This document shows, one piece after another, positions 335-12,278 of a DNA stretch of 36,248 nucleotides. Source of the stretch: Metabacillus niabensis. Lineage in GTDB: Bacteria > Bacillota > Bacilli > Bacillales > Bacillaceae. The position numbers and the translations under genes were made by a program. Each line of letters starts with the position of its first letter. Position 1 is the stretch's first letter. The DNA lies in NCBI RefSeq assembly GCF_902829255.1, contig NZ_CADEPK010000360.1, positions 1 through 36,248 on the forward strand, written 5' to 3'. The notes below the pieces were generated by a model, which ran no database searches, was not told where the DNA came from, and saw nothing but the letters and a program-made list of their open reading frames with translations.

Positions 335-378
335 GGGGACAGTCCCCCGCCGCGTTAAAGCGATGGGGGACTGTCCCC
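335..378. repeat. REPIN-like doublet, class 1
   Basis: Two copies of the island palindrome in inverted orientation: GGGGACAGTCCCCC at 335-348 and GGGGGACTGTCCCC at 365-378, separated by 16 bases that end in TTAAAGCGAT. The flanking TT and AA extend the outer pairing, so a single strand could fold into one long hairpin of about 16 bp. The same 14-16-14 layout with the same spacer end recurs at 1871-1914. The doublet ends 20 bases before the -35 box of the antisense RNA promoter. Confidence 0.9.
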
Positions 379-398
379 AATTATTCGCTTTTATCAAA

Positions 399-427
399 TT
401 GATATATGGGGAGTTATTGATTATAAT
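399..427 (+). promoter_or_regulatory. Sigma-A promoter for antisense antitoxin RNA
   Basis: TTGATA at 399-404, a 17-base spacer and a perfect TATAAT at 422-427. The expected transcription start is about 434. There is no open reading frame downstream on this strand, but a strong intrinsic terminator follows at 508-566, so the product is predicted to be a short untranslated RNA running convergently into the 3' end of the toxin gene. Confidence 0.75.
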
Positions 428-438
428 TTATTTATATA

Positions 439-467
439 TAAAAAAATCAGGTGTTAGGGCACCTGAT
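439..467 (-). terminator. Terminator of toxin mRNA
   Basis: On the minus strand ATCAGGTG pairs with CACCTGAT around a 6-base loop (stem 446-453/460-467), followed by a run of six further T residues. It lies 83 bases past the toxin stop codon and would end the toxin mRNA near 440. Confidence 0.8.
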
Positions 468-507
468 TAAGACAACTACTTAGCTGTTTCATATTGCGGC
501 TAACCCG

Positions 508-566
508 AAAAAGAAGTAACTTCCATTGCCATGGGTGCGGTTGGGGAGTTTACTTCTTTTTATTTT
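508..566 (+). terminator. Terminator of antisense RNA
   Basis: AAAAAGAAGTAA at 508-519 pairs with TTACTTCTTTTT at 550-561. The stem continues inward (CTTCC 520-524 with GGGAG 544-548) past one bulged base, giving about 17 bp. A T-rich tail follows (to 566). The distal arm includes the toxin stop codon region. Confidence 0.7.
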
Positions 567-660
567 GATTCAACATGATCACAATTGTCAGTGCACCAAT
601 CAAAACTAAGTTTGAATTAAATACAATAGAGATTGCTTCGTATGTTGTTATATTATCCAC
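550..660 (-). CDS. BsrG/TxpA-type small membrane toxin (holin-like toxin family)
   Basis: A 36-aa protein, too short for ordinary gene calling. It starts at GTG 660 with a GGGAGG ribosome site seven bases upstream. The protein begins VDNITTYEAIS, continues with one hydrophobic membrane segment of about 18 residues, and ends in a lysine-rich tail (NQNKKK). The T-x-Y-E-[AS] start, single transmembrane helix and basic C-terminus are the hallmarks of the BsrG/TxpA family of type I toxins, which disturb the membrane. Nearby are an extended -10 upstream, a terminator downstream and a convergent antisense RNA. The family call is by motif recognition; toxicity is inferred. Confidence 0.78.
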   Translation of the reverse strand: MDNITTYEAISIVFNSNLVLIGALTIVIMLNQNKKK

Positions 661-718
661 CTCCCGTCCTCCCAGGAAGTGATTAACCGCATTATTCGCC
701 TATGTAGTTGTTTCCATC

Positions 719-747
719 ATTTTAGCATTTTTACCAATGTAAAACTA
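719..747 (-). promoter_or_regulatory. Extended -10 promoter for toxin gene
   Basis: On the minus strand TGCTAAAAT (719-727) is an extended -10 with the TG motif; the -35 region (about 742-747, TAGTTT) is poor. The start would fall near 712, giving a toxin mRNA of about 270 nt, close to the roughly 300 nt of B. subtilis bsrG. Confidence 0.5.
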
Positions 748-892
748 GAGGAAATACGAATATATGTTCTGTTTTGGTTCAAGAGTACTATGAAACGAGA
801 CAGCGTCAAGGTCGGTTTAGGACATGGGATTAGAAGGTGTTTTTTATATGACTGAAGACTTTATTAGCAGCTAGGAAGCTTGGTCTAAACAT

Positions 893-942
893 AAAAAAGG
901 TGTCTTTTGTGGGGGACTGTCCCCAGCATGAGACACCTTTTT
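893..942 (-). terminator. ROK kinase terminator with a palindromic repeat in its loop
   Basis: AAAAAGGTGTCT (894-905) pairs perfectly with AGACACCTTTTT (931-942), a 12-bp stem ending in T runs on both strands. The stem starts 11 bases past the ROK kinase stop codon. The 25-base loop carries one complete island palindrome (911-924), so the structure is a hairpin within a hairpin. Confidence 0.85.
911..924. repeat. Island palindrome, single copy
   Basis: GGGGGACTGTCCCC, T-centred, inside the loop of the terminator at 893-942. Confidence 0.9.
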
Positions 943-952
943 CGTTGCGTGT

Positions 953-1846
953 TTATTTTGGTAAGAGTCCTGCTCCAATTAAACCTGCTTTTTGATCGAG
1001 TAATGCTGGTTTAATTATGAGGGAATCTCTTAGACTTGGGTAAAGGTAATTTCTTGTTTTTTCTATTAAAGGCTGAAGAATTAAGTCTTTTGATTTCATG
1101 ACACCGCCACCGATGACAATTACTTCAGGGTTGACTGTATGGACGATGTTTGCAAGTCCGATAGCAAGATAGTTGATCGCTTCATCTAGAATGTCCTGCG
1201 CCGCTTTGTCACCTTGTGAAGCTAGCTCGAATACTCCTTGGGCACCGTTTGTAATCCCGAGGCGTTCTTTGCCAATTCGTCCAATTGCTGTTCCACTTGC
1301 AAGTCCTTCAAGCGCACCTTTATTTAAGCCAGGTCCTTGGTAGGCATCTGGGCTTGGATTAACGATCATGTTGCCAATCTCCCCACAGTTTCCTTGGGCA
1401 CCTGAAATAAGCTCACCATTGTTGACATATCCGCCACCGACGCCTGTGCTAACGGTTACATAGAAAACACTCTTTGCCCCTTTGCCTGCACCAAGTGTCG
1501 CTTCGGCAAGTGCTGCTGCATTTGCATCATTTTCTAGCTTAACTGGGATTCCAGTCTTTTCTTCTAGCATTTTCACTAATGGCACATCCACCCAGCCTGT
1601 GAGGTTTGGCGGCTCAATGATCACACCCTCATACGGATCTAATGGGCCTGGTGAGCCAATGCCTACTGCTTTAATCTCATACTGCTGCTTTAATCGATTA
1701 ATAACCTCCTGCATATTGTTCACTGCAAATTCCGGCCCCTTTTCCGCTTCTGTCGCGCGGCTATACTCCTCTACTATCTCTCCCTGTTCATTAAAAAGAC
1801 CGATGCGCAGGTTTGTCCCACCTAAATCAATGCCAATTGTGTACAT
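953..1846 (-). CDS. ROK-family sugar kinase
   Basis: A 297-aa cytoplasmic kinase of the ROK family, expected to phosphorylate a hexose or related sugar with ATP. The N-terminal phosphate-binding motif DLGGTN is at residues 7-12, ENDANAAALAEA holds the catalytic aspartate near residue 105, and a glycine-rich GVGGG segment follows. The usual GEIGH and CxCGxxGC zinc-binding signature is absent: the protein reads GEIGNMIVNP and has no cysteine cluster, so it belongs to a zinc-free branch. The ATG at 1846 has an AAGGAGG site eight bases upstream. It lies downstream of the sugar ABC transporter on the same strand but is separated by a terminator and about 350 bases, so it may have its own promoter. 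Substrate unknown. Confidence 0.85.
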   Translation of the reverse strand: MYTIGIDLGGTNLRIGLFNEQGEIVEEYSRATEAEKGPEFAVNNMQEVINRLKQQYEIKAVGIGSPGPLDPYEGVIIEPPNLTGWVDVPLVKMLEEKTGIPVKLENDANAAALAEATLGAGKGAKSVFYVTVSTGVGGGYVNNGELISGAQGNCGEIGNMIVNPSPDAYQGPGLNKGALEGLASGTAIGRIGKERLGITNGAQGVFELASQGDKAAQDILDEAINYLAIGLANIVHTVNPEVIVIGGGVMKSKDLILQPLIEKTRNYLYPSLRDSLIIKPALLDQKAGLIGAGLLPK

Positions 1847-1870
1847 AATGCTTCCTCCTTGTATTTGGGC

Positions 1871-1914
1871 GGGGACAGTCCCCCAATGCTTTAAAGCGAT
1901 GGGGGACTGTCCCC
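1871..1914. repeat. REPIN-like doublet, class 1
   Basis: GGGGACAGTCCCCC (1871-1884) and GGGGGACTGTCCCC (1901-1914) in inverted orientation with a 16-base spacer ending TTAAAGCGAT, identical in plan to 335-378. It begins 25 bases upstream of the kinase start codon, so it lies in the 5' region of that gene. Confidence 0.9.
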
Positions 1915-2160
1915 AGTCTTACTGTTAGTTTAACGGAATTTAAAGTATGTGTGAAGAATTTCATTTAATATTTTTACTTAATCGATAAGGTCTGTTTTTA
2001 GGTAATTTTCATCAAGGATAACTAGAGAGGCTTTTTCAATGTGAAGGATAATCAAATTATTACTTTGGAGAATTCAAAAGAGACGAACAAAAACATGAAT
2101 GCACTACTCTAAAAATCTAGCTAATAAATACAGGTTCTACCCTCTATTAGCTTAAAACCA
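1915..2160. other. Gene-free interval between kinase and transporter
   Basis: No gene seen. It holds an 8-bp inverted repeat AGCTAATA (2119-2126) / TATTAGCT (2145-2152) of unknown role. A promoter for the kinase would be expected here, but no convincing -35/-10 pair was found. Confidence 0.5.
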
Positions 2161-2195
2161 AATGAAAGACCCCCACCCATTTGTGAGTGAGGATC
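2161..2195 (-). terminator. Terminator of sugar ABC transporter operon
   Basis: On the minus strand GATCCTCACTC (2195-2185) pairs, with several G-U pairs, with GGGTGGGGGTC (2178-2168) around a six-base loop. A T-rich tail follows. It lies just past the second permease gene. Confidence 0.65.
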
Positions 2196-2202
2196 CCTCT
2201 CC

Positions 2203-3024
2203 TTACCCTTTTACCGAACCTGCTAACAATCCTCTTACAAAGTATTTCCCAAGTAATATATAGACTAGTAGAGTTGGTAATGCCGCTAATAGAGCACCTG
2301 CCATTTGGACGTTCCAATGGACGATCTGACTGCCTGATAGATTTTGTAGTGCGACCATGATTGGCTGCTGGTCAGATGTGGTAATCGTGACGGCGAAAAG
2401 AAACTCATTCCATATGTTTGTAAATTGCCAGATTGCCACAACAACGAAGCTAGTAATCGATAATGGAATCATGATGTGACGGAAAATCCCGAGAAATCCT
2501 GCGCCATCAATTTGTGCGGATTCAATCATTTCATCCGGAATATTCGCATAGAAATTTCGAAACATTAACGTTGTAATCGGTAAGCCGTAGACGACGTGGA
2601 CAAATACGAGTCCTGGAATCGTGTTATATAGACCGATTTCCCGCAAAAATTGAATTAACGGAATTAAGATGCTTTGATATGGGATAAACATCCCGAATAG
2701 GATAATCGTAAATAGCGTATTTGCACCTTTAAATTTCCATTTTGATAAGACATAGCCGTTCATCGCTCCTAGCAAGGCAGATAAAATCGTTGCTGGAATG
2801 ACTAAATAAAATGAATTTAAAAGATTTGGCGCTAATTTTGAAAAAGCCTCAGAATAGCCGCTTAAGTCAATCGCTGTTGGCAGCTGCCACATTGTTGCAA
2901 GTGTCACTTCATCATACGGCTTTAAGCTTGTCACAACCATGACATAGACTGGCATGAGGAAGAAAAGACTCATTGCGATTAATAAAAGGTAAATCATTGG
3001 TCTGCTTAGTCGCTTTAGAACCAT
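2203..3024 (-). CDS. Sugar ABC transporter permease (MalG-like)
   Basis: A 273-aa inner-membrane permease of the carbohydrate uptake family CUT1, with about six membrane segments. The cytoplasmic EAA loop that contacts the ATPase is visible at residues 168-190 ([13 protein letters not shown]). The ATG at 3024 has a GGAGG site six bases upstream. The gene begins one base after the stop codon of the partner permease, so the two are translationally linked. No ATPase gene is present; CUT1 systems of bacilli often share a housekeeping ATPase (MsmX/MsmK type), which is the likely arrangement here. The exact sugar cannot be told from sequence. Confidence 0.9.
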
Positions 3025-3025
3025 A

Positions 3026-3994
3026 TTATGCCTCCGCCTTTCTACTATTGATTAAGTAAGGGACGATGAAGATTGCAACAGATACAAGCATAATAATCGC
3101 AATCGCTGCTCCATTTGCATAATAGTTGCCACGGAAGGTTGTTTCAAACATGTACACCCCAGGGACATCGGTAACGAAATTTGCCCCAGGCCCTGTCATC
3201 GCATAAATAAGGTCAAAGATTTTTAACGAAATATGAGCCATAATAATGATGACACTCACTGTAATTGGACGTAATAACGGTAAAATAATTTTTCGATAAA
3301 TCATGATTTCTGAAGCTCCGTCCATCCGTGCCGCTTCCCGTACTTCATCAGGAATTCCCCGCAGCCCTGCTAAATACATCGCAAGGGAGAAGCCTGTCAT
3401 TTGCCAAACGGCTGCAATGACAACAGCAATAAGCGCAGCCGGTATGCCAAATTCTATTTTTCCCCAGCTAAAGCCTGCTAAAACATTCGTATCTGTATAC
3501 CATTTTGCGTTAAGGCCAAGTTTGTTCAAAAATAGATTGACCCCTGTTGAAGGGTTTAAAAGCCATTGCCAAACAACTCCTGTCACGACGAATGATAACG
3601 CCATTGGGAAAAGAAATAAGTTCCGGAAAAATGGCTCCCCTTTAATTTTTTGATCAAGCAAAATCGCAAGCAGCAACCCACTGATAATGACAAACCCGAT
3701 AAATAATATCGTAAAAAAGAGCGTATTCCGTAAATCCGCCTGGAAACGGAAGTCTTGAAATAAGTATATATAGTTTTTCAAACCTGCAAATGAGAAATCA
3801 GGCACGAGTGAATTCCAATTGCTGAATGACACATAGCCGGTCCATCCGATAAACCCATATACAAAGATTAAAATGAGTAGAAATGATGGCAAAATAAAGC
3901 CGATGGCCATCAGATGGTCTCTCGAGATTTTTTTCCTTTTCCGTACGGCGGCAACTGGCTTTTGTTGTAGATCTGTTGGTTTCGCTGTTTCCAT
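3026..3994 (-). CDS. Sugar ABC transporter permease (MalF/UgpA-like)
   Basis: A 322-aa CUT1 permease with a basic N-terminal tail ([12 protein letters not shown], residues 18-29) followed by about six membrane segments. The EAA loop is at residues 220-243 ([11 protein letters not shown]). The ATG at 3994 has a strong GGAGG site. It forms the heterodimeric channel with the product of 2203-3024 and follows the sugar-binding lipoprotein gene after an 86-base interval that holds two GC-rich stem-loops. It was probably co-transcribed from the cre-bearing promoter near 5415. Confidence 0.9.
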
Positions 3995-4032
3995 CTCGTT
4001 CTCCTCCTTTTAAGGGTAAGACCCCTCATGTA

Positions 4033-4076
4033 AGGGGACCTACCCCTAAGAGGGGGAAGGGAAATCCCGTCCCCTC
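4033..4076 (-). promoter_or_regulatory. Intercistronic stem-loops after binding-protein gene
   Basis: On the minus strand GAGGGG pairs with CCCCTC with an inner GGGA/TCCC stem (4050-4076), followed by AGGGG/CCCCT around a five-base loop (4033-4047). Neither has a T run, so they are not typical terminators. Structures in this place in binding-protein operons (for example malE-malF) protect the upstream message from decay and favour binding protein over permease. That role here is inferred. Confidence 0.55.
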
Positions 4077-4080
4077 GTGT

Positions 4081-5370
4081 TTATTTAAGTTCTGCCGCAG
4101 CTGCTACTAATGAATCTGTAAATTGCTTCACATCTTTTTGCGTTACAAAGATGTTGACGCTTTGGTTTACCTTCGTTAGGAAGCCTTCTGATGCTGCCGA
4201 TCCGTGCGCTAAGCTTGGTGCTAACTTTCCTGATTTAAAGTCTTGCATCGTGTCTTTTCCATATTGGTCATATTTCATAATGTCTGCATCAACACGTGCT
4301 GGAATCGAGCCTTTTAATGGATTAAATGCATCCTGACCTTCTACAGATGCTAAAACGCTTAAGAATTTTTTCACACCTTCTGGATTTTCAACACCTTTTG
4401 GTAGCCCAAATGTATCTGTAATTACTTGGAACATGCCGTCCGTACCAGGTGTTGGCACATAGCCGAAGTCTTCATTCACCTTTAGCTGCAAATCATTGAC
4501 AAGATACCCTTTTGCCCAGTCACCCATTACATTCATTGCCGCTTCACCGTTTGCGACTAATTGTGAAGCATCCTGCCAATTGCGTGATGCATGGTCTTCG
4601 TTCATATAGCTAAGCATTTTCTTGAAAATTTCTGCCGCTTCGACTACTTTTGGATCATCGAACGATAATTCACCTGTCCAAAGCTTTTTATATTCATCTG
4701 TACCCAATACCCCTAAAAGGACAGTTTCATAAAGATGTGTTGCAGCCCATGGCTCTTTATCACCGAGTGCAAGTGGAGTAATGCCCTTTGCTTTTAATGC
4801 ATCTGCTACTGTAAAAAACTCATCAAATGTTGTTGGTGCTTTTAAGCCGTTTTCGTCGAATATTTTTTTGTTGTACCATAGGACGTTAGCCCGGTGGATA
4901 TTGACTGGTACTGAGTAAATTTCGCCATCCTTGCTAACCATTTCAATTAAGTCCTCTGGAAATTTATCCATTAGCTTTTCTTCTTCGTAAAAGTCATTTA
5001 ACGATTCCATTTTCCCTGCTGCTACCCAGCCTTCATTAAGCTCGGCTCCACCATGAACCTGGAATGTTGCCGGCGGATCATCTCCTTGCATCCGACTCGC
5101 TAGTACGGCTTTTGCATTTGTTCCCGCTCCACCAGCGACAGCGGCATTTTCAATCGGAACATCTGGGTGTTTTTCCTCGAATAACGCTAATAGTGCTTTT
5201 AAGCCGTCTTCCTCACCAGCACCTGTCCACCAGCTGAATATGTCTAATGTTGCTTGTTTATCGTTACTGGAGCTGCTTTCTTTTTTCTCACCTGAGCTCG
5301 AATCTGAGCCACAGGCTGATACGATTAATGAAAAAACAAAAAATAGTGCTAAAATCAAACTCTTTTTCAT
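4081..5370 (-). CDS. Extracellular sugar-binding lipoprotein of ABC transporter
   Basis: A 429-aa solute-binding protein of the CUT1 group (SBP family 1). It has a lipoprotein signal peptide: a hydrophobic stretch ends in the lipobox VSAC with the lipidated cysteine at residue 20, then a serine-rich linker. The mature part begins LDIFSWWTGAGEE, typical of oligosaccharide or monosaccharide binding proteins. It captures sugar outside the membrane and passes it to the two permeases encoded next in the operon. The ATG at 5370 has a GGGGGA site. The upstream promoter region has a perfect cre match, which suggests carbon catabolite repression, and the adjacent three-component system is the likely specific activator. 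Confidence 0.92.
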   Translation of the reverse strand: MKKSLILALFFVFSLIVSACGSDSSSGEKKESSSSNDKQATLDIFSWWTGAGEEDGLKALLALFEEKHPDVPIENAAVAGGAGTNAKAVLASRMQGDDPPATFQVHGGAELNEGWVAAGKMESLNDFYEEEKLMDKFPEDLIEMVSKDGEIYSVPVNIHRANVLWYNKKIFDENGLKAPTTFDEFFTVADALKAKGITPLALGDKEPWAATHLYETVLLGVLGTDEYKKLWTGELSFDDPKVVEAAEIFKKMLSYMNEDHASRNWQDASQLVANGEAAMNVMGDWAKGYLVNDLQLKVNEDFGYVPTPGTDGMFQVITDTFGLPKGVENPEGVKKFLSVLASVEGQDAFNPLKGSIPARVDADIMKYDQYGKDTMQDFKSGKLAPSLAHGSAASEGFLTKVNQSVNIFVTQKDVKQFTDSLVAAAAELK

Positions 5371-5393
5371 CTTACATCCCCCTTTTGTTTCAT

Positions 5394-5419
5394 TGAAATC
5401 GTTTACAACTTTGATTATA
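5394..5419 (-). promoter_or_regulatory. Promoter -10 and cre site of sugar transporter operon
   Basis: On the minus strand TATAAT lies at 5414-5419 and TTGTAAACGATTTCA at 5394-5408 fits the CcpA-binding consensus WTGNAANCGNWNNCA at every position. The cre overlaps the predicted transcription start, a repressing position. No good -35 is present at 17 bases, in keeping with a promoter that needs an activator. Confidence 0.7.
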
Positions 5420-5477
5420 TAGGGTTATGAAAGAATTCTTACCAAGTGATTTCAGCACTATTTTATTAATTTCTGTA

Positions 5478-6947
5478 TTATTTTGTGGTCGTCATATCTA
5501 ACGTGCGATATTGCTTTGGTGAGACATTTGTCCATTTTTTAAATACCCTGCTAAAATAATTCGGGTCTTTATAGCCTATTTCATAGGAAATTTCCTTTAG
5601 GCTTAGCTTCGTGTTGAGGAGCAGCTCCTTCGCCTTTTCAATTCGGTATTCTGTTACGTAGTCTATAAAGGTCTTTTTTGTATGCTCCTTAAACATTTTT
5701 GTGAAGTAGGTTGGTGTTAATCCGACGTATTCTGCAACATCCTCTAGACTAAATGACTCTTTGTAATGAATTTGGATGTATTTTTTCGCCATTATGACCG
5801 CATTGTGCTCTTCCTTTTGCAGGATGACCTTTTCACAAAATTGCTTGATAATGTTTAGAAAGTCTTCCTTTGTTGTTGGGTCTGAAAGCTTATGGTCATC
5901 AATGTATAGTCCATGCTGTTCTAGCTGCTGCTTAAGACGGATGCCCCCTTCTTTAAGCAATTGGTCGAGGTTTTTCTCCTCTGCCTTCTTTTTTAAGTGC
6001 TCATAATAGAGTTCAAAGTAATCATTTGCTTGTTCGAGCCTGCCTGCCCGAATTTCATTTATGAGTGATTTTTCTAGCTTTGCCTTCGTTTCATCTTCAT
6101 TTGCTTCCTTCGTTATCGGGTAGCCGTACGATACATTTGCGTTCATTGCTAATTGTGTTGAGGCTAGCAATGCTTGCTGGTAGGATACCGATAGCTTGCT
6201 TAGCTCTGCGTATGGATTGCCAATCCCGATTGTCGTTTTTGGAAGGTGTCCGCTCATTGTGCGCGCGAATTTGAGCGCATCTGCCTTGACGTGATGGGCG
6301 GACTTTTTGTCTGTGATGAAAAGAACGACAAGCTTGTCACCAACCTCCTTTTGTATGTAAGGATATGGCGCTTTATTTGGTAAAGGATTTTCCACTTGAC
6401 CAAACGGCGTATAAACTTGGAAAAACGCTAAATTTGCTTGTGGAAATTGCTTTTTATATAAGTATGTTGTTTCCATTGTTATTTCGTTTTGAATAATTGA
6501 TGTGATAATTTGTTGATTTGCTAGCTTCACCGTCTCCATTTGCTGCTTTGTCGTCAGCTCAGCAAGCCGCTTTTCTTCGTTGAGCTCTTTTTCTATGCGC
6601 ATAAGCGCTTCAAGCGTTTCCTGCTTGTTGCTCGGTTTAAGGATATACTCCTTTACCCCATGCTTCATCGCCTCCTTCGCATATTCAAATGAATCATACG
6701 CAGAGAGGATAATAAACTTTGTCCGCGGCAGGTCAAGAAGGATTCGTCTTATCGCCTCAAGCCCGTCAATTCCAGGCATGCGAATATCCATGATGATCAC
6801 ATCAGGCGTATGGCGCTTCGCCTCCTCAATCGCCTTCCGTCCATTCGCCGCTTCCCCAACAACCTTAATCCGCGAAAAACTCTCCTCAATAAACCGCCGC
6901 ATCGCCTTCCTCTCGATCATTTCATCATCAACAATTAACACATTCAT
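5478..6947 (-). CDS. YesN-type response regulator (REC + AraC DNA-binding)
   Basis: A 489-aa cytoplasmic regulator. The receiver domain occupies about residues 1-120, with the acidic pair DD at 7-8, phosphoacceptor D54 (IIMDIRMPG) and the conserved lysine in ILKPSNK. A variable middle segment follows, and the C-terminal 100 residues form an AraC-type double helix-turn-helix (VAEYVGLTPTYFTKMFKEH, then ISYEIGYKDPNYFSRVFKKW). The open frame continues upstream to 7019, but the ATG at 6947 has an AAAGGAGGT site ten bases away and begins the canonical MNVLIVDDE, so it is the start. It is paired with the kinase at 7071-8534 and probably activates the sugar transporter promoter near 5415. Confidence 0.9.
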   Translation of the reverse strand: MNVLIVDDEMIERKAMRRFIEESFSRIKVVGEAANGRKAIEEAKRHTPDVIIMDIRMPGIDGLEAIRRILLDLPRTKFIILSAYDSFEYAKEAMKHGVKEYILKPSNKQETLEALMRIEKELNEEKRLAELTTKQQMETVKLANQQIITSIIQNEITMETTYLYKKQFPQANLAFFQVYTPFGQVENPLPNKAPYPYIQKEVGDKLVVLFITDKKSAHHVKADALKFARTMSGHLPKTTIGIGNPYAELSKLSVSYQQALLASTQLAMNANVSYGYPITKEANEDETKAKLEKSLINEIRAGRLEQANDYFELYYEHLKKKAEEKNLDQLLKEGGIRLKQQLEQHGLYIDDHKLSDPTTKEDFLNIIKQFCEKVILQKEEHNAVIMAKKYIQIHYKESFSLEDVAEYVGLTPTYFTKMFKEHTKKTFIDYVTEYRIEKAKELLLNTKLSLKEISYEIGYKDPNYFSRVFKKWTNVSPKQYRTLDMTTTK

Positions 6948-6973
6948 AGCTAGCGAACCTCCTTTGATGTTTT

Positions 6974-6987
6974 GGGGACTGTCCCCC
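6974..6987. repeat. Island palindrome, single copy
   Basis: GGGGACTGTCCCCC in the leader of the response regulator, nine bases upstream of its AAAGGAGGT ribosome site. Confidence 0.9.
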
Positions 6988-7041
6988 ATTCCATCATCCC
7001 TTTGACCTACAACGCTCATGTGGCAAGGGGTGAGCGTTTGT

Positions 7042-7054
7042 GGGGACTGTCCCC
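7042..7054. repeat. Island palindrome, single copy
   Basis: GGGGACTGTCCCC in the short gap between kinase stop codon and response regulator start, 16 bases past the kinase stop. Confidence 0.9.
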
Positions 7055-7070
7055 AAATGGTGATGTTGGT

Positions 7071-8534
7071 TTATGATATTGTATTCGTTGTGCCTACTTG
7101 GGGACTGTCCCCCGTAGGGTGTAGGGTGATTCGGATGGTGGTGCCTTTGTTTGGTTGTGAGATGATGTCTAGGATGTTTTTCGTTTTGTAGACGAGTTCT
7201 AGGCGTTTTATGACGTTGCGCAGGCCGATGCCTGTTGAGTGCCCATGGTGTTCTTCGTTTAGATTTATCGGGTCCTGTGAGAGGATCCTTTGTTTTGTTT
7301 GTTCGTCCATTCCCTTTCCGTTGTCGGTTACTTCGATGATGATGTTTTCACCATCCCGATAGATAGCGAGGCTTATCATCCCTCCCTCCTCAAGACCTTC
7401 TACTCCATGGATGAAGGAGTTTTCGACTAACGGTTGCAGGGTAAGAGCGGGAATTTTTACATCTAAGCAGTCTTCATCAATTTTCGTTTGAAAGGAAATT
7501 CGTTCTGCAAACCTTGTTTTTTGAATGTAAAAATACTCCTGGACGACGTTTGTTTCCTCTCTAAGGGAAACAGATTTATTTATATCTCCTAGACTTGAAC
7601 GTAGCAAGGTCGAGACTGATTGAATGAGCCTTGATGTAACATTTGCCTCCTCTAAATACGCCATTCTTGATATTGTGTTTAGCGTGTTAAATAAAAAATG
7701 CGGATTGATTTGATTTTGCAAATGCTTTAGCTCAAGTTCCTTCAAAAGCTTATCTAGCTCTGACTTTTCCTTTATTTCTTTAATATATTGTTTGATATCT
7801 TCACGCATTTGCAAAAATGATTCGCTTAGAACCTTGACCTCGTCGTTCGTTTTCATCTTAACGACCTGCACGTCGAAGTTTCCTACTGACATTTCCTTTG
7901 CAGCCTTTGATAAGTCACGGATCGGTCTTGTTAGCCCACGGGAAAACCAAATCGCCGCAAATAAGGCAAAAAGCAGAGTCGAGCTAAAAAGACTAATTGT
8001 GAACCACCTAAATGCCTTTTGCCGGTCTTCCATTTCTTGATAAAACAGTTGATAATCAGCTAATTCCAAATTGAGCAGCTGTAACGTCGATTCTAAAATA
8101 TAGGATGAGATGCTACGGACCTCCATCGCATGTGCAGTATACTGGTCCAAATTGTTATAGCGCACCGCTTCAATCGTAATATCACTTTCAGAAATAAGGC
8201 TTGCAATCATCCGTTGGTACTTTTTAAGCTCTACTTGGTTAATCCCTGTCATCGCCTCATCTGTTAGTCGACGATTGTTTGCCAGCAAGTGTTTTTTTAC
8301 CTTTTCGTATTCTTCCAGGTAAAGCGGATCCTTTTCAACAACGTAGGCATTAATTTTTTCATACACTGTTGTTGATTGCTGTGTAATTTCGTTAAAAAGT
8401 AAAAATCGTTCAAAGCTCGTACGATACTCGTTAACAAATTTTGAACTGCTGAAATAAATTGAGTAGGAGACAACGTTAAATAAGACGACAAATGCTAGAA
8501 AATATAATAATAGCTTGTTGCGAATACTGTTCAT
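7071..8534 (-). CDS. YesM-type sensor histidine kinase
   Basis: A 487-aa membrane kinase. It has membrane segment 1 at about residues 9-28, an extracellular helical domain (29-176), membrane segment 2 (177-197), HAMP (198-250), a His_kinase domain with phosphoacceptor H279 in QINPHFLFN, and a C-terminal ATPase domain with LVENSFIHG and DNGKGM motifs. The last 15 residues (PTGDSPQVGTTNTIS) come after the normal family end (TTIRITL) and are partly encoded by an island palindrome at 7100-7113. The ATG overlaps the sensor-protein stop codon (ATGA), so translation is coupled. It is predicted to receive the sugar signal from the 8531-9562 product and phosphorylate the response regulator. Confidence 0.9.
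   Translation of the reverse strand: MNSIRNKLLLYFLAFVVLFNVVSYSIYFSSSKFVNEYRTSFERFLLFNEITQQSTTVYEKINAYVVEKDPLYLEEYEKVKKHLLANNRRLTDEAMTGINQVELKKYQRMIASLISESDITIEAVRYNNLDQYTAHAMEVRSISSYILESTLQLLNLELADYQLFYQEMEDRQKAFRWFTISLFSSTLLFALFAAIWFSRGLTRPIRDLSKAAKEMSVGNFDVQVVKMKTNDEVKVLSESFLQMREDIKQYIKEIKEKSELDKLLKELELKHLQNQINPHFLFNTLNTISRMAYLEEANVTSRLIQSVSTLLRSSLGDINKSVSLREETNVVQEYFYIQKTRFAERISFQTKIDEDCLDVKIPALTLQPLVENSFIHGVEGLEEGGMISLAIYRDGENIIIEVTDNGKGMDEQTKQRILSQDPINLNEEHHGHSTGIGLRNVIKRLELVYKTKNILDIISQPNKGTTIRITLHPTGDSPQVGTTNTIS
7100..7113. repeat. Island palindrome inside kinase coding sequence
   Basis: GGGGACTGTCCCCC, located within the last 15 codons of the histidine kinase; in that frame it encodes the residues GDSPQ. 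Confidence 0.9.
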
Positions 8535-9562
8535 GGTTGCTGTCCTCCACTCATTGTAGCAGGATCCAACGGCAAGTCTTCTTTATGGACAATCTTTGTG
8601 TCTGTGTGCTGTAAAGGCTGTAGCTCCTTTCCTTCATTTAGTTGGATAAGCCGTTCCACTGATTCGTATCCCATCTGGTAGGGAAATTGGACAACGGTTG
8701 CTTCAATGAGTCCATTTTCAATGTATTCAAGTGTTTCGGACAGGATGTCAAAGCCGATGATATAAATATTGTCTTCTGCTTTAAGATTGCTGACTACCTT
8801 TGCAATTCCGATGCCGTCTAGCGCACTTGTCCCGTAAAAGGCTGTTACAGACGGGTATTGCTTGAGAATTTTATGAGCGGCTTCAGATGCACCGATTTCA
8901 GTAATATTTGATTCCTCGACGGTTAGTACCGAAATTCTTTTTTCCGTTGCGATTGCATCCATGAAGCCTTGAACCCGAAGCTTTTGATGTGGGGCATCGT
9001 GGCGCCCTGTAACGATTGCGACATGCTGTCGTCCTGTTGTATCGTTTATGATTGCTTTGCCAGCGATGAATCCCGAGTAGTAATTATCGGTTCCAACATA
9101 GACGGCACGCTCACTTTCGGGGGCGTCTGTATCAATCGTGACGATCGGAATTGATTTTTCCTTTGCCTTTGTTACGAGATGATTAAATTGCTCCTCGCCA
9201 ATTCCCTGGGTAATGATGCCATCTACCCTGCCCGCTATTGCCATATCTATCGTTTTGAGGTGCTCAGCTGTATTTGCCTGCTTCGGACCGAGATACTCCA
9301 AATACACATTATGAAACTTCGCAGCATCGCGCGCCCCTTGCTCAACAAGCCGCCAATAATCATTATCAAGCTCCTCTGGAATGAGGACGAAATGATGCTG
9401 ATAGTTGTTGTGGTGGGTGTTGGGGACAGTCCCCTGTGCTTGGGTGGGGACTGTCCCCGTTTCAAAGTGAAAGGTCTCTTTGCCATAGTATAAGGTTAGA
9501 ATACTAGTAAAAATGAATACAAGAAACGTAGAAAAATAGAGAAAACGTCGAAAATAGCGCAT
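8531..9562 (-). CDS. Membrane-anchored sugar-binding sensor protein (RbsB/LacI-like fold)
   Basis: A 343-aa protein with an N-terminal membrane anchor (about residues 5-24), a linker, and a periplasmic-binding-protein type 1 domain of the ribose-binding group (for example IPIVTIDTDAPES, YVGTDNYYSG). Its place directly upstream of a YesM/YesN pair matches known three-component systems such as AraPST of Geobacillus and XylFII-LytS-YesN of clostridia, in which the binding protein presents sugar to the kinase. The frame opens at 9574, but the ATG at 9562 has a GAAGGA site 11 bases upstream and is preferred. The linker GTVPTQAQGTVP is encoded by two island palindromes (9422-9458). Confidence 0.85.
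   Translation of the reverse strand: MRYFRRFLYFSTFLVFIFTSILTLYYGKETFHFETGTVPTQAQGTVPNTHHNNYQHHFVLIPEELDNDYWRLVEQGARDAAKFHNVYLEYLGPKQANTAEHLKTIDMAIAGRVDGIITQGIGEEQFNHLVTKAKEKSIPIVTIDTDAPESERAVYVGTDNYYSGFIAGKAIINDTTGRQHVAIVTGRHDAPHQKLRVQGFMDAIATEKRISVLTVEESNITEIGASEAAHKILKQYPSVTAFYGTSALDGIGIAKVVSNLKAEDNIYIIGFDILSETLEYIENGLIEATVVQFPYQMGYESVERLIQLNEGKELQPLQHTDTKIVHKEDLPLDPATMSGGQQP
9422..9458. repeat. REPIN-like doublet, class 2, inside sensor gene
   Basis: GGGGACAGTCCCC (9422-9434) and GGGGACTGTCCCC (9446-9458), inverted, spacer TGTGCTTGGGT of 11 bases. It is read in frame as GTVPTQAQGTVP in the linker between membrane anchor and binding domain. The same spacer recurs at 9646-9682. Confidence 0.9.
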
Positions 9563-9585
9563 TGAGTAATCCATCCTTCGTATTT

Positions 9586-9609
9586 AGGTAAGCGTTTTCT
9601 TTTATTGTA
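9586..9609 (-). promoter_or_regulatory. Candidate promoter and imperfect cre for sensor operon
   Basis: On the minus strand TACAAT (9604-9609) is a possible -10, followed by a cre-like sequence at 9586-9600 that matches the consensus core GNAANCGNWNNC but differs at two outer positions. The -35 is weak. Confidence 0.4.
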
Positions 9610-9645
9610 TTCGATTTAATAGGGATTTGGTAGTGGGTGGTTTTT

Positions 9646-9682
9646 GGGGACTGTCCCTTGTGCTTGAGTGGGGACTGTCCCC
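9646..9682. repeat. Palindrome doublet, class 2, downstream of RAYT
   Basis: GGGGACTGTCCCT (9646-9658) and GGGGACTGTCCCC (9670-9682) in direct orientation with spacer TGTGCTTGAGT, nearly identical to the spacer at 9435-9445. It ends 20 bases past the RAYT stop codon. Confidence 0.88.
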
Positions 9683-9702
9683 AAAATTACTCAGCCTTAA
9701 AA

Positions 9703-10248
9703 TTATGTTTCGTCAGGGGATTCCTCGGTATATTGCTTGAAAAATTGAATATTAGAATTTGTAAAGTAAGAGAGTGTTCTTTCTGTTGTGACAAGCGGGT
9801 TTTTGTTTGGGGTTACATATGTAGAATAGCTACTCCACGGATAATCCTCGGGGGTTGAGACAAGCTTTGCTTCTACAGGGTTACGATGAATGTAGCGGTT
9901 AACAGTAAGGAAGTAATTTGCGTCAAGTATGAGCTTTGCCCCATATCTTCCTTGGAAAACATGCCCTACTAACGAATATCGTTTGTTTAAATAGATTGCA
10001 TATCTTGTATGGAGAACTTTGATAATCTGACTAGTTGAGGTGTCTTTCGTTTCTAGCTGGAGATGGATGTGGTTATTCATTAAACAGTAGGCGTGTAAAT
10101 CAAAGGGGTATTTTTCCTTTGTTTCCTTTAAAATTTCCATGTACTTACGAATGTCCTGGCTATCATGAAATAGCTCACTCTTACGATTTCCTCTTGCTGT
10201 AATGTGATACGTTGCTCCAGGAAACCAGATTCTGTTTTGTCTTGCCAT
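9703..10248 (-). CDS. REP-associated tyrosine transposase (RAYT, Y1_Tnp family)
   Basis: A 181-aa HUH-superfamily single-strand DNA transposase. The metal-binding HUH motif is at residues 58-62 (NNHIH, H60 and H62), and the candidate nucleophile tyrosine lies in NYFLTVNRYIHRNPVEAKL (Y112 or Y119; choice not certain). The opening HITARGNRK and the trailing DYPWSSY are typical of the IS200-like TnpA group called RAYT. RAYTs are usually single, non-mobile genes that cut and rejoin REP palindromes. The gene is flanked by island palindromes on both sides (9646-9682; 10332-10436), which supports that pairing. The ATG at 10248 has an AAAGGTG site. The gene appears complete; activity is untested. Confidence 0.92.
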   Translation of the reverse strand: MARQNRIWFPGATYHITARGNRKSELFHDSQDIRKYMEILKETKEKYPFDLHAYCLMNNHIHLQLETKDTSTSQIIKVLHTRYAIYLNKRYSLVGHVFQGRYGAKLILDANYFLTVNRYIHRNPVEAKLVSTPEDYPWSSYSTYVTPNKNPLVTTERTLSYFTNSNIQFFKQYTEESPDET

Positions 10249-10331
10249 AGTTATTCACCTTTCCTTATTTTTTTATGAGGGCTATGCCCGGTCATAAGTA
10301 GATTCGTCGTTAACAGGTGAATCCCTTCTTT

Positions 10332-10345
10332 GGGGACAGTCCCCC
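10332..10345. repeat. Island palindrome, upstream of RAYT
   Basis: GGGGACAGTCCCCC, A-centred, about 84 bases upstream of the RAYT start codon, flanked by T and A as in the consensus. Confidence 0.9.
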
Positions 10346-10399
10346 AAAATTGTGGTTTTTTATTTTTTCCTTTTGAAAATTTAATTTTGAAAATGAGAG

Positions 10400-10436
10400 A
10401 GGGACAGTCCCCAAAACGTTGCGGGGGACTGTCCCC
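10400..10436. repeat. REPIN-like doublet next to phaC
   Basis: AGGGACAGTCCCC (10400-10412, one arm mismatch) and GGGGGACTGTCCCC (10423-10436), inverted, 10-base spacer. The second copy ends four bases past the phaC stop codon. Confidence 0.88.
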
Positions 10437-10440
10437 AGTA

Positions 10441-11496
10441 TTATTTCGATCTCTTTGCTAGCCATTTTGATAGATAGTCCGGTATTGTGCCGGTGAGGGC
10501 GAGGGAGGCGTGGCCACCTTGGACTTCGAGGTAGGTTTTGTCCTTGCTTGAGATATGGTTCATAATTGGTTTTATTTGTTCTGCAGGTACGAGTCTATCG
10601 TATGCTGTTGCTACTGTTAAAAGATTTGCTTTAATATTTTTTAGTGATGCTCCTTTGTTGTTAATCATTTGTTTGTTTCGTATTAGCTTGTTTTCTTTTC
10701 CAAGGTCGTTTAGTAATTGCTTTAAGGTTGCACCCGGAAGCGGGATGTGCCCCTCTGCCCACATATTGATTCTTCGCCACCGCTCAACGTGTGAGTCATC
10801 ATAACTTTTTTGAAGCAGGGTTGCCTGGGGGCTAAAATAAAGCGGCGAGGTAATAAGACGCATGCCTGCCTTGATAACTTGAGCAGGAATGAGTCCCATT
10901 GCATCGATTATTTCTTCCATATTGAAGCTTCCATCCTTAATCGCCTTTGCCCACTCATCAAAAACAGGAGTTTGACTAAAGTCTACCGGGGTTGCAAGCA
11001 AAACGAGATTTTTGATCGGTACTTTTGTTATCGCGGCAAACATTGTCGCAAGTGTGCCCCCAAGACAAAAGCCAATGACAGTGATTTCTTTTGCATTAGA
11101 ATGAGCTAATACACGTTCAGATGCAGGCTCTATATATTGCGAAAAATAGTCATCAAGAGTCATATCCTTATCTTCATAGCCCGGGATGCCAAAATCTATT
11201 AAGTATACATCATAGCCTTCCTTACCAAATGCCTCAATCATACTCATGTTAGGCCCCAAATCAAGAATACTCGGCTGGTTCACTAGTGAATAGATAAGAT
11301 AGAGTGGTACGCTAAATCGTTTATTCGGAGATGGATAGTACCAAAGTGTCGCCTTGTTTTTCTTCCAAATCGCTTCTTTTGGCGTTTGCCCTATTTCAGG
11401 GAGCCTTTCGCTCCATTGCCGATTGTACCCTCGCCACCTTTTCAATTCATGCTCTACTAGTTCATACTGTGCTTGGTTTAATTCGTTGTTAGCCAA
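10441..11496 (-). CDS. phaC: Class IV polyhydroxyalkanoate synthase, catalytic subunit PhaC
   Basis: A 351-aa alpha/beta-hydrolase-fold enzyme that polymerises (R)-3-hydroxyacyl-CoA into storage polyester on granules. The lipase-like box GFCLGG places the catalytic cysteine at C144; aspartate D300 (AYDRLVP) and histidine H329 (GGHAS) complete the triad. Spacing and length fit class IV enzymes of Bacillus (about 361 aa, C151/D306/H335). Translation appears to start at TTG 11496, which lies within the 3' end of phaR (8-base overlap) with a GGAG site about 11 bases upstream. PhaC of this class needs PhaR for activity. Confidence 0.9.
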   Translation of the reverse strand: MANNELNQAQYELVEHELKRWRGYNRQWSERLPEIGQTPKEAIWKKNKATLWYYPSPNKRFSVPLYLIYSLVNQPSILDLGPNMSMIEAFGKEGYDVYLIDFGIPGYEDKDMTLDDYFSQYIEPASERVLAHSNAKEITVIGFCLGGTLATMFAAITKVPIKNLVLLATPVDFSQTPVFDEWAKAIKDGSFNMEEIIDAMGLIPAQVIKAGMRLITSPLYFSPQATLLQKSYDDSHVERWRRINMWAEGHIPLPGATLKQLLNDLGKENKLIRNKQMINNKGASLKNIKANLLTVATAYDRLVPAEQIKPIMNHISSKDKTYLEVQGGHASLALTGTIPDYLSKWLAKRSK

Positions 11497-12079
11497 TGTT
11501 TTTCAATCTCCGCTTTAAAACTTCGATAGGCGCTTCCTGTGTCTGGTTATTTTCTGCTTCTTGTTGATCGTTTAGTGGCTGTCTATTCACCCCTACATCT
11601 ACTTGCTCTCTTAGAAATGCGAGAATATTTTCTCGAGGGTTTGTTGTAGTATCCGGTGATGATGATGACTTTTCACTTTGTTTTTGGCTTAAACTAGCTA
11701 CGGAAGCTTTGCTTTTATTTAATCGTTGAGAAACAGAGGATTGCTCACGATTTGATACAGCTTGTGTCGCTACTGGCGCATTTTGCAGCTGTCTTAAATA
11801 ATCCTCTAGTAAGTCCATTTTCTCTTCTAGCTGTAAAACTAGCTTAGCTACGTTTGCAACATCATCCTTTGTCGGGATTCTTAAAGCAGTCGTTATGATT
11901 TCCTGATACCTTTGTAGTTGTCTTAGCACCTCTCCGGTAACTGCTGATTGATCTGCCGCAAGCTTCACTAAACTCTCATTGTTAAGCTGATTTTGAATGA
12001 ATTCATTAATTCTCGCCTCACCACCTTGGGCAAGCTTTTTTAGTTCTTTGTATAATTGATCTGTAAGTTTGCTAGACAT
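11489..12079 (-). CDS. phaR: Class IV PHA synthase subunit PhaR
   Basis: A 196-aa hydrophilic, Gln/Ser-rich and largely helical protein. Residues 1-105 form amphipathic helices (KLTDQLYKELKKLAQGG; LQLEEKMDLLEDYLRQLQNA), followed by a low-complexity serine/threonine linker and a short C-terminal basic part. Size, composition and position directly before phaC with overlapping frames identify it as PhaR, the accessory subunit of class IV synthases. The frame opens at GTG 12088, but ATG 12079 has an AGGAG site eight bases upstream and is preferred; the GTG would overlap that site. Confidence 0.82.
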   Translation of the reverse strand: MSSKLTDQLYKELKKLAQGGEARINEFIQNQLNNESLVKLAADQSAVTGEVLRQLQRYQEIITTALRIPTKDDVANVAKLVLQLEEKMDLLEDYLRQLQNAPVATQAVSNREQSSVSQRLNKSKASVASLSQKQSEKSSSSPDTTTNPRENILAFLREQVDVGVNRQPLNDQQEAENNQTQEAPIEVLKRRLKNIG

Positions 12080-12110
12080 ATTATTCACTCCTATTATTGG
12101 GAATTTTTTT

Positions 12111-12141
12111 GGGGACTGTCCCTCTTTGGGGGACTGTCCCC
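12111..12141. repeat. Palindrome pair in direct orientation upstream of phaR
   Basis: GGGGACTGTCCCT (12111-12123) and GGGGGACTGTCCCC (12128-12141), both T-centred, four bases apart. They lie 32 bases upstream of the phaR start. Confidence 0.88.
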
Positions 12142-12205
12142 AAACAGGCCTTATTCCTTTTGAAAGCTAGAGTAGAATCCTTTTGTAGCAATGTTTCCTG
12201 GGTGT

Positions 12206-12219
12206 GGGGGACTGTCCCC
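12206..12219. repeat. Island palindrome, single copy
   Basis: GGGGGACTGTCCCC in the interval between the dehydrogenase and phaR. Confidence 0.9.
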
Positions 12220-12263
12220 AATTTGTTAGTTGTGTCTCCTTATTTGTTGTAAACTCATTTATT

Positions 12264-12278
12264 GGGGGACTGTCCCCC
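12264..12278. repeat. Island palindrome, longest arms
   Basis: GGGGGACTGTCCCCC, T-centred, with flanking T and A: the longest perfect pairing of the family here. It ends 15 bases before the last codon of the dehydrogenase gene and partly overlaps an 11-base direct repeat (12276-12286 / 12290-12300). Confidence 0.9.

What the first reader, a model, noticed from the sequence alone, without database searches (positions are those of the whole stretch)
335..12278. Gram-positive REP/REPIN island with its own RAYT
Nineteen copies of a 13-16 bp palindrome (consensus TGGGGGACTGTCCCCA; arms GGGGAC/GTCCCC around a single central T or A) lie between 335 and 12278, and none was seen in the following 24 kb. 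A complete RAYT gene (9703-10248) sits inside the cluster with copies on both sides. RAYT-REP pairing is established in proteobacteria; here the palindrome and host group differ. Inference: the RAYT mobilises or maintains these repeats, and the cluster marks a zone of recent spread within a carbohydrate/PHA region.
Basis: partly seen in the sequence, partly recalled or inferred. Interest (0 to 1): 0.8.

Follow-up and report, generated by a model that had tools for sequence, protein, structure and literature searches.

The report
Gram-positive repeats paired with a transposase
A Bacillus relative carries over a hundred copies of a tiny 13-letter DNA palindrome that cluster around, and across relatives change together with, the gene of a domesticated transposase, extending a repeat-and-transposase partnership best known from Gram-negative bacteria to Gram-positive bacteria in a form that lacks its usual recognition tag.

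Summary
GGGGAC[A/T]GTCCCC occurs 19 times at 335-12277 with at most one mismatch (16 exact; 0.01 expected) and not in the other 24 kb. The genome holds 118 exact copies against 0 for the reversed control, so the window is a dense part of a genome-wide family. The protein at 9703-10248 is a REP-associated tyrosine transposase (RAYT) with HUH and Tyr motifs.
The pairing is well supported. At 76 of 110 related loci the RAYT is accompanied by a palindrome of the same plan, GGKGNC-W-GNCMCC, with varying letters (252 sites against 1). The letters follow the RAYT tree, largely predict which family fills a genome and differ between two RAYTs of one cell. Pairs 31 bp apart share a spacer core across genera.
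"Recent spread" is not supported for most copies: 13 of 19 lie in intervals also occupied in two relatives, 6 do not. G017 has 83 copies and no RAYT.
There is no GT[AG]G guide, so it is not a canonical REP; it is closest to TIRYT/TIRtrons (GGGGWSAS), without their C-terminal helix-turn-helix.

The parts
9703..10248 (-). RAYT / TnpAREP-like HUH-Y1 transposase, 181 aa; HUH = H60-I-H62, Y119, N123
   Evidence: PF01797 1.9e-15; NF047646 88.7 bits over cut-off 80; residues invariant in an alignment of 16; AlphaFold model pLDDT 92.6, best PDB match 4er8, REP-associated transposase with REP hairpin, E 3.4e-10
335..378 (.). 44-bp REPIN: REP 335-347, 18-bp spacer CGCCGCGTTAAAGCGATG, REP 366-378
912..924 (.). 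REP at the tip of a terminator-like inverted repeat (aaaaaaggtgtct / agacaccttttt)
1871..1914 (.). 44-bp REPIN: REP 1871-1883, spacer CAATGCTTTAAAGCGATG, REP 1902-1914; a pair with the same 31-bp spacing lies in the same interval of G008
6974..6986 (.). REP just upstream of the response-regulator gene
7042..7054 (.). REP, intergenic
7100..7112 (.). REP inside the 3' end of the histidine-kinase gene; the C-terminus there differs from the eight orthologues aligned
9422..9458 (.). REP pair (9422, 9446; 24 bp apart) in frame in the N-terminal linker of the sugar-binding protein gene 8531-9574
9646..9682 (.). REP pair downstream of the RAYT gene (9646 with one mismatch, 9670)
10332..10344 (.). REP upstream of the RAYT gene
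10400..10436 (.). REP pair upstream of the RAYT gene (10400 with one mismatch, 10424)
12111..12141 (.). two REPs 18 bp apart (12111 with one mismatch, 12129)
12207..12219 (.). REP
12265..12277 (.). REP
10441..11496 (-). PhaC-like synthase, neighbour of the RAYT in G000, G008, G012 and G018

Best explanation
This is a REPtron-like system. The RAYT is the enzyme that recognises this genome's 13-bp palindrome as a single-stranded hairpin and has copied it, partly as inverted doublets (REPINs), into sites mostly between genes, preferentially near its own gene. Shown: family identity of the protein; the repeat family; co-diversification of RAYT and palindrome; each of two palindrome families clustered around its own RAYT in one chromosome; a conserved REPIN spacer core; many copies old. 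Inferred: binding of the hairpin while single-stranded during replication, HUH-Tyr cleavage and rejoining beside the hairpin, and the 44-bp REPIN (REP, 18-bp spacer near C-R-N-Y-GC-KTTAAM-GC-R-N-Y-G, REP) as a main moving unit, with isolated 13-mers as older or partial products. The RAYT gene itself is present once and kept at one place beside phaC.
For: Genome-wide family: 118 sites, control 0. Genus, 21 genomes: the four with this RAYT clade (own, and 67-73% identical in three) hold 118, 74, 54 and 54 copies; of the other 17, one holds 83, seven hold 1-7 and nine hold 0. Second family in the genus, GGTGACAGGCACC: all six genomes with the RAYT clade flanked by it hold 8-24; of the other 15, three hold 6-10 and twelve hold 0. 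G008 and G012 carry both RAYTs, each with its own type. 24 genomes picked by me, from the 80 loci, for a readable type: GGGGACWGTCCCC gives 54, 96, 7 and 39 in the four hosts of that type, 1 in one other, 0 in 19. GGTGTCAGGCACC gives 44-193 in the six hosts labelled TT|TC and 54 in L103's; of the other 17, 173, 57, 12, 9, 4 and 2 in six and 0 in eleven. GGGGTCWGACCCC gives 6-28 in the seven hosts of that type, 1-29 in nine others, 0 in eight. Three of the off-type counts (G111 173, G123 29, G103 7) go with a second RAYT flanked by that type. Tree: 14 label changes against 28.8 shuffled (0 of 200); with rows under 70% identical 7 against 13.2 (0 of 500). Clustering: G008 has 12 of 54 copies within 10 kb of the RAYT, 0.19 expected; 5 of 20 merged clusters within 100 kb, p = 5e-4; family two has 10 of 14 within 100 kb of its own RAYT. 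Spacer core GC[GT]TTAA or TTAA[AC]GC: 16 of 16 distinct spacers of 31-bp pairs, 23 of 29 of 39-bp pairs, 0 of 27 of 24-bp pairs. Between orthologous copies inner arm letters differ at 5 of 650 positions, flanks at 336 of 3598 (copies were chosen as perfect in one species and with at most 3 mismatches in the other, which lowers the first figure).
Against: G017 has 83 copies and no RAYT. Off-type populations without a matching RAYT flank in the loci seen: G116 57 GGTGTCAGGCACC, G121 12 and G123 9 of the same, G102 12 and G106 6 of GGGGTCWGACCCC; G118 has 18 of the latter and one RAYT with mixed GGGGAC/GGGGTC flanks. G007, G014 and G015 hold 6-10 GGTGACAGGCACC copies without that RAYT clade. 34 of 110 RAYT loci show no such motif, the seven of the Rossellomorea-type clade among them. 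No insertion was seen directly: no clean empty site in the stretches compared. Most isolated copies share no flanking sequence, which a simple copied REPIN would not predict.
Confidence: 0.85

Rival explanations
1. The palindrome is a binding site of a host DNA- or RNA-binding protein, or a selected mRNA hairpin, kept by selection at useful places; the RAYT is a bystander.
For: Inner arms are conserved far above the flanks; copies avoid coding sequence; a few sit inside terminator-like hairpins; G017 keeps 83 copies without a RAYT.
Against: The letters change with the RAYT clade, including between two RAYTs of one cell; copies pile up around the matching RAYT; some copies lie inside genes; a tandem array differs in unit number between G008 and G012.
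Confidence: 0.1
2. The repeats spread by another mobile element or by replication slippage and template switching, and the RAYT merely binds or was captured by them.
For: The 35-bp tandem array differs in unit number between G008 and G012; no insertion event was observed; the centre base is swapped A/T in 5 of 65 orthologous copies.
Against: It does not explain why a RAYT lies with its own type at 76 of 110 loci or the type-by-type match across genomes.
Confidence: 0.12
3. It is an ordinary IS200/IS605 insertion sequence with its subterminal hairpins.
For: Same PF01797 superfamily; the genome also has a separate, much better-scoring PF01797 match on contig C70, so IS200-like elements occur.
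Against: The NCBIfam IS200 model scores 23.7 against a cut-off of 55 while the REP-transposase model passes; this RAYT has one match in the genome, beside phaC in four genomes, with 118 dispersed hairpins.
Confidence: 0.02

Closest known systems
TIRYT / TIRtron (Di Nocera et al. 2013, PMC3733652)
   Same: Y1 transposase flanked by inverted repeats with the motif GGGGWSAS; GGGGACAG and GGGGTCAG fit it; repeats can be self-complementary, dimeric and dispersed (section 16 read).
   Different: Here each repeat is a 13-bp odd palindrome in up to 193 exact copies per genome, with many letter variants that follow the RAYT tree. In the main text the word Firmicutes does not occur and Bacillus occurs twice, once in a list of MITEs; figures were not seen.
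TnpAY1 subclass 2.1 (Quentin et al. 2018, PMC6006769), to which that paper assigns 291 of 292 RAYT group 1 sequences of Bertels et al. 2017
   Same: The window protein is 43% identical to L154, a protein with the Bac_DnaA_C C-terminus named as typical of that subclass.
   Different: The window protein is 181 aa and has no C-terminal helix-turn-helix; the paper found no REP-like sequences at subclass 2.1 genes. Assignment with the paper's own profiles was not possible.
E. coli REPtron / REPIN-RAYT systems (subclasses 2.2 and 2.5)
   Same: Best structural match 4er8; dispersed REPs, inverted doublets, RAYT-REP specificity, REPs near the gene (for the published side).
   Different: No GT[AG]G guide. 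Of five E. coli residues discussed for GTAG contact only Q95 is kept; W94, E100, H101 and R104 read F, A, K and L in a weak pairwise alignment (E 0.002).

Membership tests
REPtron / REPIN-RAYT system (general) | HUH-Tyr Y1 protein of the REP-transposase family | tested here: met
REPtron / REPIN-RAYT system (general) | gene flanked by palindromes that are dispersed in many copies | tested here: met
REPtron / REPIN-RAYT system (general) | inverted doublets (REPINs) | tested here: met
   doublets 31 bp apart with a common spacer core; only a minority of copies
REPtron / REPIN-RAYT system (general) | each RAYT has its own REP family | tested here: met
   exceptions are populations without a matching RAYT (G017, G116 and smaller ones)
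Canonical GTAG REP | 5' GT[AG]G tetranucleotide at the hairpin foot | tested here: not met
   8 of 190 copies examined, about 3% expected by composition
REPtron / REPIN-RAYT system (general) | enzyme cleaves and rejoins single-stranded REP | not testable with these tools
   needs purified protein
TIRYT / TIRtron | flanking repeats with motif GGGGWSAS | tested here: met
   GGGGACAG at 10332 and others; motif
TIRYT / subclass 2.1 | C-terminal helix-turn-helix (Bac_DnaA_C, HTH_23 or HTH_28) | tested here: not met
   181 aa, only PF01797; longer relatives show it: L154 Bac_DnaA_C over its cut-off, L055 HTH_23 below its cut-off
IS200/IS605 insertion sequence | transposase and ends move as one multi-copy unit | tested here: not met
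   one match of this RAYT in the genome; NF033573 below its cut-off

The most novel reading that the evidence does not exclude
A guide-less REPIN class of Bacillales and other Firmicutes: the RAYT reads two half-sites GGKGNC around one A/T, half-site letters and RAYT co-diversify, and a separate 18-bp inner module (core GC-KTTAAM-GC) is kept constant across genera and half-site types, so recognition and copying are split between two modules. Residue 85 of the RAYT (mostly I or M with GGGG types, mostly K, N or R with GGTG types) is a candidate reader of base 3, and some copies land in the tips of pre-existing hairpins.
Probability: 0.4. Interest if true: 0.78.

Novelty: new variant of a known kind. 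Interest (0 to 1): 0.62.

Why it matters
REPIN-RAYT partnerships are a well-studied case of a transposase domesticated with its repeats, and the experimental work seen here (passages of PMC8266576) uses Gram-negative models with a GTAG guide. A Gram-positive family with dozens of naturally varied RAYT-palindrome pairs, sometimes two per cell, gives a ready matrix to find out how a RAYT reads its hairpin without the guide. The nearest published subclass was reported to lack REP sequences, yet these relatives have large repeat populations.

Tried and rejected
Recent island of spread: not supported for 13 of 19 copies, left open for 6. The comparisons of G008 with G012 and G000 with G017 are biased: on both sides I fetched stretches because they hold repeats, so a site empty in one species would mostly appear as 'not in one alignment' (11 of 73 and 41 of 69 copies); two G008 stretches (L229, L230) found no partner. 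Of the 62 G008 copies inside one alignment 53 have the repeat in G012 with at most one mutation and 9 fall on alignment gaps, among them L220:12377, which is largely missing in G012. Of the 28 G000 copies inside one alignment 25 have it in G017 and 3 fall on gaps. The output was cut in the middle, so G012-to-G008 was not fully read. Clean empty sites: none found.

Known RNA family: no Rfam match in the window at gathering scores. Hairpin-tip targeting as a general rule: rejected. Flank complementarity of isolated copies exceeds mis-paired flanks in G000 (36 copies, 4.82 against 3.81, largest of 200 shuffles 4.27) and G008 (33; 4.85 against 3.86, largest 4.41), but not clearly in G017 (48; 3.97 against 3.58, largest 4.30) and not in G018 (16; 3.91 against 3.92). 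In-place inversion from the centre base: 5 of 65 A/T swaps, only suggestive. Residue 85 as the specificity residue: hydrophobic in 35 of 40 and polar or basic in 24 of 27, but only 2 supported independent pairs. The 110 loci include the window itself, some near-copies, two pairs of identical RAYTs, fragments and one doubtful relative (L062, 29% identity). Rows dropped: three truncated RAYTs from the tree (107 rows, 75 with a type); also L062, L154, rows without a motif and rows of mixed type (67 left, 43 under 70% identity); two fragments of 27 matches.
Full report
Observation. GGGGACWGTCCCC with at most one mismatch occurs 19 times in the window, all within 335-12277, against 0.01 expected from shuffles. 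The whole genome (4.99 Mb, 462 contigs) has 118 exact copies and none of the reversed control. The window, under 1% of the genome, holds 16 of them: an enrichment, not the whole family. Outside the 13 bp the letters are mostly free, with a weak T[T/G] before and [A/C]A after. Three of 19 copies lie in genes where 85% of the stretch is coding.

The protein. 9703-10248 (minus) encodes 181 aa: PF01797, NCBIfam REP-associated tyrosine transposase over its cut-off, HUH residues H60/H62 and Y119/N123 invariant in an alignment of 16. An AlphaFold model (pLDDT 92.6) matches the REP-associated transposase bound to a REP hairpin first (4er8, E 3.4e-10). It has one match in its genome (a second PF01797 match on contig C70 scores far higher with that model, as IS200-type proteins do) and lies beside phaC in G000, G008, G012 and G018, which points to vertical inheritance. 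The genus is probably Metabacillus: two genus members have RAYTs identical to those of named M. crassostreae and M. litoralis loci.

Does the repeat track the RAYT? In the genus (21 genomes) the four genomes with this RAYT clade hold 118, 74, 54 and 54 copies; of the other 17, G017 holds 83, seven hold 1-7 and nine hold none. A second RAYT clade in the same genus is flanked by GGTGACAGGCACC, and all six of its genomes hold 8-24 copies; three others hold 6-10 and twelve hold none. G008 and G012 carry both RAYTs, each with its own palindrome next to it, so host background alone cannot explain the match.

Beyond the genus. 110 RAYT loci (30 from the genus, the window included; 80 from the named collection) were scanned for the plan [GA]G[GT]GNC[AT]GNC[AC]C[CT]: 76 have at least one, 65 within 350 bp of the gene; 252 sites in all against 1 when the sequence is read backwards. 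Types include GGGGAC, GGGGTC, GGTGAC/GGTGCC, GGTGTC/GGTGCC and GGTGCC. The G-or-T letter at base 3 needs 14 changes on the RAYT tree against 28.8 in shuffles, and 7 against 13.2 when near-copies are removed. For 24 genomes that I picked because a type could be read at the RAYT locus, genome-wide counts largely follow the type. GGGGACWGTCCCC is the cleanest: 54, 96, 7 and 39 in the four hosts of that type, 1 in one other, 0 in 19. GGTGTCAGGCACC: 44, 193, 101, 90, 138 and 99 in the six hosts labelled TT|TC and 54 in L103's, but also 173, 57, 12, 9, 4 and 2 in six others, 0 in eleven. GGGGTCWGACCCC is the least clean: 6-28 in the seven hosts of that type, 1-29 in nine others, 0 in eight. Twelve of the 24 were searched again for RAYTs and 25 of 27 matches examined: three off-type counts go with a second RAYT flanked by that type (G111 173, G123 29, G103 7); G118's 18 go with a RAYT of mixed flanks; G116's 57, G102's 12, G121's 12, G123's 9 and G106's 6 are not explained.

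Arrangement. In the complete chromosome of G008, 12 of 54 copies lie within 10 kb of the RAYT (0.19 expected); after merging neighbours, 5 of 20 clusters lie within 100 kb (p 5e-4); the second family has 10 of 14 copies within 100 kb of its own RAYT. Neighbouring copies prefer start-to-start distances of 24, 31, 35, 39 and 57 bp. Those 31 bp apart share an 18-bp spacer close to CRNYGCKTTAAMGCRNYG: its core (GC[GT]TTAA or TTAA[AC]GC) is in 16 of 16 distinct spacers, from different genera and different half-site types (a few are orthologous); 39-bp pairs have the core in 23 of 29, 35-bp pairs in 4 of 13, 24-bp pairs in 0 of 27. The window has two such 44-bp units (335-378, 1871-1914).

Age. Laying the genes of the window on G008 and G012 (DNA about 70-86% identical to G008 in the alignable pieces), 13 of the 19 copies lie in intervals that also hold copies there: ROK to the ABC genes, inside the sugar-binding protein gene, both sides of the RAYT, and phaR to phaB (of G012 the first of these intervals has one copy). 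Six do not: 335, 366, 912, 6974, 7042 and 7100. Those may be gains in this lineage or losses in the other. G008 and G012 in turn share copies upstream of another gene that the window lacks. The pair in the sugar-binding protein is in frame in G000, G008 and G012, while the orthologues of G006, G010, G013 and G015, genomes with 0-7 copies, have another linker. Between the closer pairs G008/G012 and G000/G017 (about 6% apart) most copies that could be compared are shared (53 of 62 and 25 of 28, the rest on alignment gaps), but both sides were chosen for holding repeats, so empty sites would be missed. Inner arm letters differ in 5 of 650 comparisons and flanks in 336 of 3598 (conditioned on a perfect copy in one species). 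So many copies are old and kept; a recent burst is not shown.

Against the reading. G017 shares copies with G000 and has no RAYT hit with the protein or with PF01797. In the 20 stretches fetched there are three 100-base gaps and no RAYT remnant. Loss or an assembly gap are both possible. Populations without a matching RAYT also exist in G116, G007, G014, G015 and, smaller, elsewhere. 34 of 110 RAYT loci lack the motif.

Known kinds. The GT[AG]G guide of canonical REPs is absent (8 of 190 copies, about the 3% expected), and of the E. coli guide-contact residues only Q95 is kept (alignment, residues). The repeat fits the GGGGWSAS motif of TIRtrons (PMC3733652, section 16); 20 of 26 of those proteins belong to subclass 2.1, reported without REP-like sequences (PMC6006769, sections 20 and 12). 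That subclass has a C-terminal helix-turn-helix, which this protein lacks. I therefore call it a guide-less, TIRYT-like REPIN-RAYT variant.

Literature seen: PMC6006769 (outline, passages, sections 10, 11, 12, 20); PMC3733652 (passages, section 16); PMC8266576 (passages); PMC8049555 (term search without hits); PMC4847372 and PMC9693769 (one passage each, tables that count RayT genes in Geobacillus); PMC6542083 and PMC6776889 (term searches, where RAYT was only part of personal or company names). Bertels et al. 2017 was not held and is known here only through PMC6006769. The six 13-mers occur in two papers of the library, neither about bacterial repeats by title. Searches for RAYT with REPIN, Gram-positive, Firmicutes or Bacillus terms listed no paper whose title or opening abstract describes this; most listed papers were not opened, and the library holds only openly licensed papers.

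Noticed in passing
window 912-924; L183:1002; L190:1080; L219:985; L208:12692; L231:3993: Some isolated repeats sit in the tip of a longer inverted repeat, terminator-like in the window case, as if inserted into the loop of an existing hairpin. Above the shuffles in two of four genomes tested.
   Followed up: partly
L245 (G012) and L219 (G008), tandem arrays with 35-bp period: The same array has more units in G012 (8 exact copies in a row) than in G008 (4), so repeat number also changes by tandem expansion or loss.
   Followed up: partly
orthologous repeats: The central base is swapped A/T in 5 of 65 orthologous copies, more than A/T changes elsewhere (about 2% of A/T sites), with no other change at the centre.
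   Followed up: partly
RAYT residue 85 (P0001): Hydrophobic in 35 of 40 GGGG-type and polar or basic in 24 of 27 GGTG-type RAYTs; a candidate specificity residue, confounded by phylogeny.
   Followed up: partly
L055, L056, L061: Longer RAYT relatives (210-256 aa) in the genus are flanked by inverted repeats with ACA[G/T]GGGGACAGGT, another GGGGACAG variant; L055 has a weak C-terminal helix-turn-helix match.
   Followed up: no
window 14289-18669: SWIM zinc-finger protein followed by an SNF2-family helicase.
   Followed up: no
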